A stretch of 64,000 nt of DNA, taken from contig JBCAQO010000006.1 in assembly GCA_039111635.1 (NCBI GenBank), forward strand, positions 620,001-684,000, read 5' to 3'. This document shows positions 38,926 through 42,436 of this stretch, piece after piece (position 1 is the first letter of the stretch; the number at the start of each line of letters is the position of its first letter). A model generated the notes under the pieces. That model did no database searches. It was not told the DNA's origin and worked only from the letters and a program-made list of their open reading frames with translations. This DNA comes from Heterobasidion occidentale (lineage: Eukaryota > Basidiomycota > Agaricomycetes > Russulales > Bondarzewiaceae). Position numbers and translations under genes: made by a program.

Positions 38926-39482
38926 GGAAACTCAGAGGAGCGCTTGCGATATAACCAAAACCATTTCACTTCATCAACTATGGCGGCGTTTATGCTCAGG
39001 GGCTCTGCGTCAATGTAAAGCATTCTGTATTGTGGTCGTACTCTCTTCGATGCTCTCCATTTTGAGTGCCTATCATCTGGACAAATGCAGCACCTACTTC
39101 AAGATGCACGTTGTTCACAGCAATGCGTTCGCACAATAAAGAAGAAGAAAGGCCATAACATGTATTTGAAACGTAGGATGTATTAGAACATGAACAAAGA
39201 AAGACATAGGAGAGAGAAAAATAATTAAAGGACAGAATCCATGACCTTCGCCCCGCAGATGTTCATCAGTTTATCTAACGAACATGGCATCCTTGTGTCA
39301 TTCCTGCACTCGCACTCGCCCGCTGATTCATCGGGTTCTACCTACTGTCGCTCTCGCAGCAATAATTCCTCGCGCTCGTTCAGCTGCCCACCTATGATCT
39401 TATCCGATTCTTGCCCATCCTGCACTATTATTCCGATGAGATGACAGTTAGTCACACTTGCTCAGCACTCGTCAAAGTCAGT
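38926..39482. other. Convergent intergenic region
   Basis: This lies between the end of P450 copy 3 (plus) and the end of the antizyme gene (minus). An A-rich stretch with AATAAAG (39136) could serve 3' end formation. No gene seen. Confidence 0.45.
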
Positions 39483-40687
39483 TTAGATCTCCAGGCCGAC
39501 GAGGATGTACGCGGGGTCGACCTGGAACGGAGGTTTAGTAACGACGGTGCCGCCGACATACATGAGCGAGTGCAAGAGGTCGCCCAGCGCCGGGGTAGTT
39601 TTTTCGAGCGCGATGACGAGCGCGTTGCACTCGAGATGTTCATCCGCCAGATCAAGTAGGGCGACAATACTGTAGATACAATGATCAGAAAAAGAAAGAA
39701 AGAGGAGAAAAAGATGAGAGAAAGATGATCAGTTGCCCGAGTCCAATCGGAGGGAAGTAAAAGGAAAATACAGCCGAACGCACCTCTCACGCAAGCTGAC
39801 AATCTCGGCGCTCTTCCCGTCGACGTACAGGGTTCGTGGTTTGCCCGGCAGCGTGAGTACAACCCCATCGAAGGATGCGCCAAGGCCCGGGGAAGAAATG
39901 GACACACGCTTGGCGTGGGGCAGGGCATTCACCGCGTCTCGGGGGAACAGCGTAGCGAGTAGCTCAAGCGCATCGTCAGACGTCTGTCCGAGGTCCGAGC
40001 CCGATTCGGAGGAGTCGTCATCGTCGTCATCGTCCGGCGTGAGGGGAGGTGTTGCGAGTTCGTGCGCATATGCCGCAACCGCAGACTTGGGAATCGGTTG
40101 AGGGGATACGGCCGATTGGGGAAGAGACTCGGCAAGCGGGAAGTACAAGGGCTTTTGAGCCATTGAGCCGGAGGCGGGAGCTGAAGAAACGGACGGAAAG
40201 GCAGCAGGGCGGGAAGAAAAGTAGGAAGGCGAAGCGGGGGAAGCGGAGGCGGCACGAGGAAGAGTGGAATATGCGGATTTGGCGATCGACGCCGGACTGT
40301 CTCTCACACAGTCCGACGACCCTCGGTCAGGAGGGCATTTGGATTTAGGGACGTCAAAACCGCCACTGTCGGAAATGGTTCACAATCGTTCAGTCAAACA
40401 ATGTCTCAGGTCAGATAGCAAGAGGGCAACATGAGAAACTTACCCCAGGCCCGCCAGAGAACGTAGTAGAGTAGTAGTACATGTTGTCGTTGCCCTGTAC
40501 GTGGCAAACGGCAAGCACACTAGGAGTAGCGTCGGTAGAGAAAGCCCCATCCCCAACGGTTTGACGGCCGTTGCTGTCAAGATGTTTAAGATCAACAAAA
40601 CCATAAGAAAAAGCCGAAGAAAGAGACATACGCGGGGCAAGGACTAGATATCGGTTTTGAAATATTCATCATAATTGAATTCGACAT
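39483..40687 (-). CDS. OAZ: Ornithine decarboxylase antizyme, decoded by +1 frameshifting
   Basis: Antizyme binds ornithine decarboxylase, sends it to the proteasome and lowers polyamine uptake; polyamines induce the frameshift needed to make it. Exons on the minus strand: 40687-40632, 40573-40444, 40365-39784 and 39669-39483. The first frame (65 codons, MSNSIMMNISKPI to SGGPGWRF) ends at UGA 40356-40354. The second frame begins DVPKSKCPPD, runs through an acidic, Ser-rich region and the conserved C-terminal domain (TLYVDGKSAEIVSLRE, VALLDLADEHLECNALVIAL, FQVDPAYILVGLEI). The total is 317 residues. The W-x-x then D-V-P context around the stop matches animal antizymes (W-C-S then D-A/V-P). A TATA box (40943-40948) supports a start in this area. 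Confidence 0.88.
40354..40359 (-). other. Programmed +1 ribosomal frameshift site, UUU-UGA
   Basis: On the minus strand, TGG CGG TTT TGA C is read in the zero frame; slipping by one base gives TTT then GAC GTC CCT. Known antizyme sites in animals are UCC-UGA; here the P-site codon is UUU. It lies six bases into exon 3, right after an intron acceptor (GACAG). Without the shift the product is only 65 residues. Confidence 0.85.
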
Positions 40688-41539
40688 GGGTTGCCAACTT
40701 GATCTGGTTGAGGTTGACGATGAGGTGGTGTTTGGTGTTATCAAAGTCTAAAATAAGATAAGCTCAGCAAGACTGCCGATTGCAGATGTGACAGGCGACA
40801 TGAATGATGATGAAAGACTCACAAAGTGACAAAAATCGCACGAAAAGTGTCGGAGTGAGTGATTTGAGCCGCTGTAGCAAAGGTGAATGGCACGGTGGTC
40901 GGAGGCAAGGCGTTGCTTCGGCGGGGGCCGCTGCGCGACGGTTATATACCGCCTTACCAATCAGCGCTAACCTTGAAACCCCTGACCACACACGTGGCTT
41001 CAACTGGCGTCATAGCCTGGGCTCATGTTTCCACAACGTTCTGAACACAGAAAAAACATGCCCAGTTTGAGGGTGGAGAAGCGATAGTGCTGCGATGATG
41101 TAGGAGTCAAGAATAGACGTGGAAGGACATCGCAGAGACGAATTAGATGGAAGAATGCGAGTCGTGGGTATGTTATCTTTCGAGGAAAAGGTGCCCGGGG
41201 TCTTTGCCATTAGGGCCGGCCTGGTCACATAGGTCACGCAGTGTGTATCGACGTCCACCAATCTCGCCCATCGCGCTCAACTCTCGCAAAACTTCAAGAC
41301 GTGAGTACCGAAATGCTGTTCTGATGTATTCACTGCATAGTCCAGAGGCATAAATCTATGCCGTCCAAATTTTGTGCTGAATGGAGAGCTGGAGAATGAG
41401 CTACTGGATGGATGGGTAGGAGACTGCTCGGATGAACTTGGAATGCGATTTATGCCTCTGGACGAGCATGGCTCCCGACCCTCTTGCGATCGCGCCAACT
41501 TACCTATCGATCTTTCAGTAACTTTTCAGCTTAAACACA
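40688..41539. promoter_or_regulatory. Divergent promoter region of antizyme and RPS2
   Basis: No gene seen. It has an antizyme-side TATA box on the minus strand (GGTATATAAC, 40941-40950) and a probable 5' leader intron (donor GTGAGT near 40824, acceptor TTTTAG near 40749). On the RPS2 side, the 150 bases before the ATG are pyrimidine-rich in places, as is common for ribosomal protein genes. Confidence 0.45.
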
Positions 41540-42436
41540 ATGGCTGACGCTGGACGCGGACGTGGTGGATTTGGACGAGGCCGTGGTGACCGAGGCCGTG
41601 GTCGTGGTCGTGGTCGTCGCGGAGGCCGCAAGGACGAGGAGAAGGAATGGTGCGTTTGCTTTACAGTTCTCTAATTCACGACCCCCCAATCGTCGTATTA
41701 ATGCACGCATCAGGGTCCCAGTTACGAAACTCGGTCGTCTCGTAAAGGATGGCAAGATCAAGTCGATGGAGGAGATCTACCTCTTCTCGCTCCCCGTCAA
41801 GGAGTACCAGATCGTCGACTTCTTCCTCCCCAACCTCAAGGACGAGGTTATGAAGATCATGCCTGTGCAGAAGCAGACCCGTGCCGGTCAGCGTACGCGT
41901 TTCAAGGCGTTCGTCGCGATCGGTGACTTTGACGGTCACGTCGGCCTCGGTGTCAAGTGCGCCAAGGAAGTCGCCACCGCCATCCGTGGCGCCATCATCC
42001 TGGCCAAGCTCTCCGTGATTCCCGTCCGTCGTGGCTACTGGGGTGCCAGTCTCGGTGCTCCCCACACAGTACCATCGAAGGTTAGCGGAAAGGTCGGCTC
42101 CGTCATGTGCCGTCTGATCCCTGCGCCCCGTGGTACCGGCATCGTCGCCGCTCCCGCATCGAAGCGTCTCCTGCAGCTCGCTGGTGTATCAGATGTCTAC
42201 ACCCAATCAAAGGGTTCAACCGCTACGATGGGTAACTTCTTGAAGGCAACCTTCGCCGCCGTGCGTATTCCTGATTTTTTTGAGACACATGGGTGATCGA
42301 TTAATTCTCTATGATTTTGCAGATCACCAAAACCTATGCCTTCCTGACGCCCGATCTCTGGCGCGAGATCCCTGTGTCGAAGGTACCATACGATGAGCAC
42401 AGCGCACATTTGCAGCTTGCAGGCAGGAAGTACTAG
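41540..42436 (+). CDS. RPS2: 40S ribosomal protein uS5 (Rps2)
   Basis: Exons 41540-41649, 41714-42260 and 42323-42436 give 256 residues, the usual length. An Arg-Gly-rich N-terminus ([19 protein letters not shown]), a known arginine methylation target in this family, is followed by [18 protein letters not shown], the S5 double-stranded RNA-binding fold ([39 protein letters not shown]), and the S5 C-terminal domain ([29 protein letters not shown]). The protein sits in the small subunit near the decoding site. Codon use is strongly biased to C-ending codons, fitting high expression. Confidence 0.97.

What the first reader, a model, noticed from the sequence alone, without database searches (positions are those of the whole stretch)
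40320..40370. Antizyme +1 frameshift site is UUU-UGA and sits right behind an intron
The minus strand reads acceptor GACAG, then TGG CGG TTT TGA C. The zero frame stops at UGA, while the +1 frame gives DVPKSKC and runs to the conserved antizyme C-terminus. The W-x-x/D-V-P context equals that of animal antizymes, but the P-site codon is UUU instead of UCC. Only nine bases of exon precede the UGA, so the recoding signal is assembled by splicing. Unspliced mRNA would lack the 5' stimulatory context.
Basis: partly seen in the sequence, partly recalled or inferred. Interest (0 to 1): 0.8.

Follow-up and report, generated by a model that had tools for sequence, protein, structure and literature searches.

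The report
Mushroom antizyme frameshift split by intron
This is the polyamine-control gene antizyme of a mushroom-type fungus, which makes its protein by a known ribosomal reading-frame shift; the small new point is that the shift signal is cut by introns in the DNA and is only put together when the RNA is spliced.

Summary
The minus strand carries an ornithine decarboxylase antizyme gene, probably from a Heterobasidion species. ORF1 (65 aa) ends YYYSTTFSGGPG|WRF*, where | is a 78-nt intron; UUU-UGA and +1 frame DVPKSKC follow. The 317-aa fused product matches Pfam ODC_AZ (E 4.6e-11).

The UUU-UGA shift is not novel. PMC4505036 reports it in all 34 Agaricomycete antizymes examined, with a nascent peptide, module A, a 5' stem and a 3' RNA structure. 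The window has all of them.

The intron is general. Of 113 relatives without an NCBI name that are readable there, 103 show it; the other 10 also lack intron 2, as cDNA would. It cuts module A after its first G. Intron 2 cuts the 5' stem. I found no mention of this in the papers I could search; the main 2007 survey was not held.

A regulatory role for splicing is not supported. Intron 2 is equally conserved, one lineage seems to have lost intron 3 while keeping the shift context, and intron retention has four different outcomes among 103 relatives (in 17 it would join the frames without a shift). I rate it a new member of a known kind with a modest new detail.

The parts
40632..40687 (-). first coding exon of ORF1 (AUG at 40687-40685)
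   Evidence: begins MSNSIMMN, identical to the start of the annotated Heterobasidion irregulare protein P0076
40574..40631 (-). intron 2 (58 nt, GTATGT...GACAG); its junction lies inside the conserved 5' stem
   Evidence: present in 88 of 98 relatives without an NCBI name that are readable there, the other 10 cDNA-like
40544..40573 (-). exon-3 part of the conserved 5' stem-loop (the rest of its 5' arm, GCCCCGC, is 40638-40632 in exon 2); ends 106 nt before UUU
   Evidence: the 106-nt distance equals that given in PMC4505036
40444..40573 (-). coding exon 3 of ORF1
40447..40479 (-). nascent-peptide signal, codons -15 to -5 (YYYSTTFSGGP)
   Evidence: codon range defined in PMC4505036; identical in 99 of 113 readable relatives without an NCBI name
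40366..40443 (-). intron 3 (78 nt, GTAAGT...CGACAG); splits module A between its first G (40444) and UGGCGG (40365-40360)
   Evidence: present in 103 of 113 relatives without an NCBI name that are readable there, the other 10 cDNA-like
40354..40359 (-). +1 shift site UUU-UGA; UUU is the P-site codon and UGA the ORF1 stop
40290..40336 (-). 3' stimulator: two adjacent stem-loops starting 19 nt after UUU-U, abutted by AAAU, with a 7-nt second loop
   Evidence: -28 kcal/mol, z -3.87, 0 of 200 shuffles as good; matches the description in PMC4505036
39784..40365 (-). exon 4: module A, shift site and first part of ORF2
39670..39783 (-). intron 4 (114 nt), 570 nt downstream of the ORF1 stop
39483..39669 (-). 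last coding exon: C-terminal part of the ODC_AZ domain and stop
40548..40550 (-). AUG in the ORF2 frame (TTGGGGATGGGG) inside the 5' stem, from which ORF2 is open in spliced mRNA
40748..40822 (-). putative 5'-leader intron (GTGAGT...TTTTAG)
   Evidence: by splice-site motifs only

Best explanation
This is a standard Agaricomycete ornithine decarboxylase antizyme gene. Splicing joins exons 2, 3 and 4. That completes the 5' stem-loop across junction 2. Across junction 3 it places the YYYSTTFSGGP nascent-peptide code and the first G of module A directly before UGG-CGG-UUU-UGA. Ribosomes reach UUU-UGA. With UGA in the A site, tRNA-Phe can re-pair one base on at UUU and reading goes on in ORF2 at GAC GUC CCU (DVP). 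The nascent peptide, module A and the 3' double stem-loop stimulate this, and polyamines raise its rate. Antizyme then inhibits ODC and sends it for degradation. The gene anatomy is shown here; the exon joins are predicted here and supported by relatives. The shift, its stimulators and the polyamine response are inferred from published work on Coprinopsis cinerea. The introns next to and inside the recoding elements are conserved ancestral introns with no demonstrated role.
For: Gene model, 65-aa ORF1 and 317-aa fused product. ODC_AZ match. One ODC_AZ match in the genome, and an ODC-type decarboxylase match there (E 3.7e-70, read through one TGA, presumably intronic). The published Agaricomycete recoding elements are present: UUU-UGA, nascent peptide and module A, the 5' stem ending 106 nt from UUU and the 3' double stem-loop, as described in PMC4505036. 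Splicing is supported by relatives: of 97 proteins without an NCBI name judged at both sites, 87 read both introns 2 and 3, 10 read neither, 0 are mixed. ORF2-side readings with intron 3 spliced out come from short contigs (44 of 46 at most 2.6 kb), unspliced ones more often from long contigs (24 of 38 above 2.6 kb), Fisher p 4.5e-9. Relatives without an NCBI name show no other join: 0 of 113 on the ORF1 side, and the 10 odd joins among 111 on the ORF2 side are all NCBI-named gene models.
Against: There is no RNA, ribosome or peptide evidence from this species here. Relatives were read as proteins, so their introns are inferred from translated splice sites. The published stimulators were tested for Coprinopsis sequence in human cells and S. 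pombe, not in Heterobasidion. The 5' stem is weaker here (13 pairs, -22 kcal/mol, 7 of 200 shuffles as good) than the 14 pairs and at least 30 kcal/mol given in the paper.
Confidence: 0.93

Rival explanations
1. Alternative splicing bypasses the shift: another donor or acceptor joins ORF1 to ORF2 in frame and makes antizyme without frameshifting.
For: 33 GT/GC-AG choices (introns of 40-300 nt) in the window would join the frames, 25 of them printed; one uses the strong natural donor 40443 with acceptor 40152. Several NCBI gene models of relatives use such joins (P0041, P0076, P0081, P0114, P0181, P0218, P0230, P0233).
Against: The joins appear only in NCBI-named gene models: 0 of 113 other relatives on the ORF1 side, and all 10 odd joins of 111 on the ORF2 side are NCBI-named. 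The H. irregulare model seems to need a GT 11 nt inside the intron (inferred from the proteins P0076 and P0001), which this window lacks (sequence). The joins delete conserved recoding elements.
Confidence: 0.05
2. Splicing of intron 3, or decay triggered by it, is itself a regulatory step. Intron retention, or NMD when the first ribosome stops at UGA 570 nt upstream of the last junction, sets antizyme output together with polyamine-driven frameshifting.
For: Intron 3 is widely conserved. Retention in the window ends ORF1 early at 72 aa; in 17 of 103 relatives it would instead read straight into the ORF2 frame, giving antizyme without a shift. A downstream intron and Mago, Upf2 and Btz matches are present. 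Drosophila antizyme mRNA rose in Upf2 mutants and is an NMD target in S2 cells (PMC1756896, passages). Intron-retention regulation is reported in the basidiomycete Cryptococcus (PMC5006051, listing only).
Against: Intron 2 is equally conserved. P0099 and P0150 seem to have lost intron 3 but keep the shift context and read into unspliced intron 4. Retention has no constant outcome in 103 relatives: 52 stop in the intron, 23 enter the third frame, 17 enter the ORF2 frame, 11 stay open to WRF/WRL (with P0003 moved by eye from the script's 53 and 22). Drosophila antizyme mRNA was not significantly raised in Smg1 mutants.
Confidence: 0.15
3. Leaky scanning makes a shift-free antizyme from the ORF2-frame AUG at 40550 inside the 5' stem.
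For: In spliced mRNA the ORF2 frame is open 174 nt upstream of the shift. The AUG context is TTGGGGATGGGG, with purine at -3 and G at +4, against CAACCCATGTC for ORF1. 30 of 120 listed ORF2-side relatives show the matching residue run M-G-(L/P/F)-(S/L/A) within their first 60 residues.
Against: Three ORF1-frame AUGs come first. The AUG lies in an RNA stem conserved for other reasons. Whether the frame stays open in other relatives was not tested on DNA.
Confidence: 0.08

Closest known systems
Agaricomycete antizyme mRNAs (PMC4505036; 34 sequences, Coprinopsis cinerea tested)
   Same: UUU-UGA, 11-aa nascent-peptide signal, module A beginning with the last G of codon -4, 5' stem 106 nt upstream, 3' double stem-loop 19 nt downstream with abutting AAAU.
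   Different: No difference in kind found in the mRNA; the 5' stem is predicted weaker here. The words intron, exon and splic do not occur in that paper's main text, so the intron positions are an addition.
Animal antizymes (OAZ1/OAZ2)
   Same: +1 shift at an ORF1-terminal UGA, W-x-x/D-x-P context, ODC_AZ domain (animal sequence context recalled, not fetched).
   Different: UUU not UCC in the P site; double stem-loop 19 nt away rather than a pseudoknot close to the shift site; no Rfam match at E <= 1.
Ganoderma lucidum GlAZ (PMC9604110, passages)
   Same: Mushroom antizyme with a 66-aa short product; a GT-AG intron is mentioned for one gene model.
   Different: The intron's place relative to the shift site is not given in the passages seen.

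Membership tests
Ornithine decarboxylase antizyme | ODC_AZ domain | tested here: met
   Pfam PF02100, E 4.6e-11, 43.1 bits against cut-off 24.2
Ornithine decarboxylase antizyme | two overlapping ORFs, the second in the +1 frame, joined at the ORF1 stop | tested here: met
Ornithine decarboxylase antizyme | polyamine-stimulated frameshifting and ODC degradation | not testable with these tools
   needs reporters and biochemistry
Agaricomycete antizyme recoding signal | UUU-UGA shift site | tested here: met
Agaricomycete antizyme recoding signal | conserved nascent peptide, codons -15 to -5 | tested here: met
   YYYSTTFSGGP; identical in 99 of 113 readable relatives without an NCBI name
Agaricomycete antizyme recoding signal | module A (G-UGG-CGN) directly before UUU | tested here: met
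   contiguous only after splicing: G at 40444 joined to 40365-40360
Agaricomycete antizyme recoding signal | 5' stem 106 nt upstream of the shift site | tested here: met
   position met exactly, 106 nt; strength lower than published: 13 pairs, -22 kcal/mol, z -2.2, 7 of 200 shuffles as good against 14 pairs and at least 30 kcal/mol
Agaricomycete antizyme recoding signal | 3' double stem-loop starting 19 nt downstream, AAAU abutting stem 1, 7-nt loop 2 | tested here: met
Animal antizyme frameshift element as listed in Rfam | covariance-model match | tested here: not met
   no Rfam match at E <= 1 in 39400-41000

The most novel reading that the evidence does not exclude
[quoted passage not shown] Splicing, and decay of mRNAs whose ribosomes stop at UGA upstream of a further intron, is coupled to frameshifting, so polyamines set both antizyme translation and antizyme mRNA lifetime. 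In some species retention of intron 3 would even bypass the shift.
Probability: 0.13. Interest if true: 0.6.

Novelty: new member of a known kind. Interest (0 to 1): 0.33.

Why it matters
It shows that a well-studied recoding signal, described only as mRNA sequence in the texts I could read, is split by conserved introns in the gene. Two consequences follow. Genomic-DNA reporters and gene callers will miss or mangle the signal, as several NCBI models do. And the last G of codon -4, read as part of module A, is also the last exon base before a 5' splice site, so its conservation has a second possible cause, although reporter data (PMC4505036) show it matters for the shift as well. P0099 and P0150, which seem to lack intron 3, give a natural test of whether the intron matters.

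Tried and rejected
Looked for DNA of relatives in viral contigs and genome contigs: no relative by tblastn in either. Intron states of relatives therefore had to be inferred from translated sequence.

Rejected UUU-UGA as a novelty (PMC4505036). Rejected a pseudogene: long ODC_AZ frame and all recoding elements present. Rejected the animal pseudoknot. Rejected intron-3 retention as a conserved switch: of 103 relatives with the intron and without an NCBI name, 52 stop inside it, 23 run into the third frame, 17 into the ORF2 frame and 11 stay open to WRF/WRL. The script printed 53 and 22 for the first two; I moved P0003 by eye. An earlier count on the 69 intron-bearing proteins alone (43, 17 and 9) has the same P0003 slip and shows no ORF2-frame class; those longer proteins came in.

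Rows dropped before counts: 52 NCBI-named models were tabulated apart from 188 others, because gene callers invent joins; 75 of the 188 were not readable in ORF1 at the boundary. A few of the 188 have NCBI among their sources but no NCBI name. On the ORF2 side, 111 of 120 listed proteins (of 336 found) were readable: 57 spliced-frame, 44 with the intron, 10 other. The contig-length test used 46 of the 57 and 38 of the 44, NCBI-named ones left out. One search found 135 and listed 120, of which 45 were new. Proteins are 90% clusters, not species.

Full report
What is there. On the minus strand, 40687-39483, lies a four-coding-exon gene. ORF1 is 65 aa and ends NMYYYSTTFSGGPG|WRF*, the bar marking intron 3 (40443-40366, 78 nt, GTAAGT...CGACAG). 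The next bases are TGG CGG TTT TGA C. Skipping one U at UUU-UGA gives a 317-aa protein that matches Pfam ODC_AZ (E 4.6e-11). It is the only such match reported in the genome, which also has an ODC-type decarboxylase match. The closest named relative is Heterobasidion irregulare (P0076, 92% identity over 92% of the exon-4 query; the other named relatives in the list of 120 reach at most 52%), so the window is probably from a Heterobasidion species; this is inference.

Is the shift site new? No. PMC4505036 (abstract; sections 4 part 1, 8, 16 part 1 and 23; passages) states that all 34 Agaricomycete antizyme mRNAs analysed plus one Dacrymycete have UUU-UGA. It tested an 11-aa nascent peptide at codons -15 to -5, module A (last G of codon -4 plus the next two codons) and deletion of the 3' structure. 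It also describes a 5' stem 106 nt upstream and a double stem-loop 19 nt downstream. The window has each: YYYSTTFSGGP and G+UGGCGG, a 5' stem ending exactly 106 nt before UUU, and a double stem-loop starting 19 nt after UUU-U, abutted by AAAU, with a 7-nt second loop (-28 kcal/mol, z -3.87). One mismatch: the 5' stem is predicted at 13 pairs and -22 kcal/mol, weaker than the 14 pairs and at least 30 kcal/mol of the paper. No Rfam family, hence no animal antizyme element, matches at E <= 1. UUU-U allows tRNA-Phe to re-pair on UUU in the +1 frame, which follows from the sequence.

The introns. Intron 3 falls inside module A, after its first G. Intron 2 (40631-40574) falls inside the conserved 5' stem: the 5' arm is GCCCCGC from exon 2 joined to CAACGG from exon 3. 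In a fold of the unspliced stretch the outer pairs between GCCCCG and the 3' arm still form around the intron, while the inner pairs change. So the published recoding signal is contiguous only in spliced RNA, although part of the 5' stem could form before splicing.

Conservation test. No fungal relative DNA was found in the two collections scanned, so I used relatives that had been translated without regard to introns. An unspliced ORF1 reads GGPG-V-(S/R/C)..., the translation of a GT donor; a spliced one reads GGPG-WRF*. Of 188 proteins without an NCBI name can be read there: 103 show the intron and 10 are spliced. Intron 2 can be judged in 97 of these 113: 87 have both introns, 10 have neither, none is mixed. 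The second residue after the boundary is S, R or C in 81 of the 92 intron-type cases of the first two searches, NCBI-named models included, as expected of GTRAGT, GTNCGT and GTNTGT donors. On the ORF2 side 57 of 111 readable proteins are in the spliced frame and 44 show the intron. Without the NCBI-named ones, spliced-frame proteins come from short contigs (median 1148 nt, 2 of 46 above 2.6 kb), intron ones from longer contigs (median 5562 nt, 24 of 38 above 2.6 kb; Mann-Whitney p 4e-8). Near-identical spliced and unspliced pairs exist: P0175/P0172 at 100% downstream of the junction, both NCBI gene models; P0125/P0095 at 99%, the spliced member an NCBI model; and, without NCBI names, P0106/P0084 at 96% and P0093/P0087 at 95.5%. 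So the intron is real, conserved and removed, and spliced transcripts still need the frameshift.

Is the intron functional? The evidence leans against. Intron 2 is equally conserved, so conservation of intron 3 is not special. P0099 and P0150 (contigs of 5170 and 4286 nt, 80% identical to each other) read straight across the junction-3 site yet continue into unspliced intron 4, and P0150 also appears to read through intron 2. They look like true losses of intron 3 with the shift context kept; this is read from protein, not DNA, and partly spliced RNA is not excluded. If intron 3 is retained, 52 of 103 relatives stop inside it, 23 enter the third frame, 17 read straight into the ORF2 frame and 11 stay open to the shift site (P0003 moved by eye). 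The 17 are a possible shift-free route in those species, but not a conserved one. In the window retention gives a 72-aa product that never reaches UUU-UGA. By chance alone, one of three introns would fall within 9 nt upstream of the UGA 3.1% of the time.

Decay. The ORF1 stop lies 570 nt before the last exon junction. The genome has matches to Mago nashi, Upf2 and Btz. Drosophila antizyme mRNA rose 3-fold by microarray and 2-fold by RT-PCR in Upf2 mutants, but not significantly in Smg1 mutants (PMC1756896, passages). A frameshift-sensitive decay of this mRNA is therefore possible but untested.

Splice-site confounding. Codon -4 ends in G in 47 of 57 spliced-frame ORFs: the residue before the shift context implies xGG in 39, xAG in 8 and xGA in 9, with 1 unclear. 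Module A's first G is therefore also the exon's last base before GT. PMC4505036 reports that changing this G lowers frameshifting, so both constraints may act.

Literature. PMC4505036 has no 'intron', 'splic' or 'exon' in its main text. The 2016 recoding review (passages; first 300,000 of 475,107 characters held) has one 'intron', about phage T4. The antizyme finder paper (passages) and the Ganoderma paper (passages) do not place an intron at the shift site in what I saw. Passages of two further papers (PMC12551717; PMC1526716) did not bear on it. The search listings (in only 20 of 35, 40 of 63 and 20 of 40 papers were listed) showed no paper on it by title or start of abstract. The 2007 survey of about 300 antizymes (NAR gkm035) is not held and may mention it.

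Verdict. The splitting of module A and of the 5' stem by conserved introns is a modest addition that I could not find in print with these searches.

Noticed in passing
proteins P0207 (contig 1541 nt) and P0216 (contig 1161 nt): Zero frame reads WRF-W-RPQSKMPSRSRVV at the antizyme shift site, implying UUU-UGG instead of UUU-UGA, with the zero frame open for 119 and 116 further residues. One still has intron 3, one is spliced. A possible antizyme lineage that shifts at a sense codon; read from protein only.
   Followed up: partly
window 40550-40548, minus strand: An AUG in the ORF2 frame with purine at -3 and G at +4 lies inside the conserved 5' stem; in spliced mRNA ORF2 is open from it.
   Followed up: partly
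17 relatives: P0078, P0079, P0084, P0088, P0089, P0094, P0103, P0105, P0116, P0156, P0173, P0182, P0187, P0194, P0204, P0210, P0239: Reading through retained intron 3 leads straight into the ORF2 frame, so an intron-retaining mRNA could make antizyme without a frameshift in these species.
   Followed up: partly
window 41544-42296, plus strand: A ribosomal protein uS5 (RPS2) gene (Pfam Ribosomal_S5, E 5.8e-28) lies head-to-head with the antizyme gene. The Asterophora parasitica model P0166 seems to fuse uS5 antisense sequence with antizyme (61% over 44 aa), suggesting the same neighbours there.
   Followed up: partly
P0041, P0076, P0081, P0114, P0181, P0218, P0230, P0233: NCBI gene models of mushroom antizymes avoid the frameshift with joins that delete or alter the recoding signal.
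   Followed up: partly
P0150 and P0175: In these relatives reading from the ORF1 start through retained intron 2 seems to enter the ORF2 frame without a shift (for P0150, for the start of P0175); in the window that route is closed by a stop after 31 aa.
   Followed up: no
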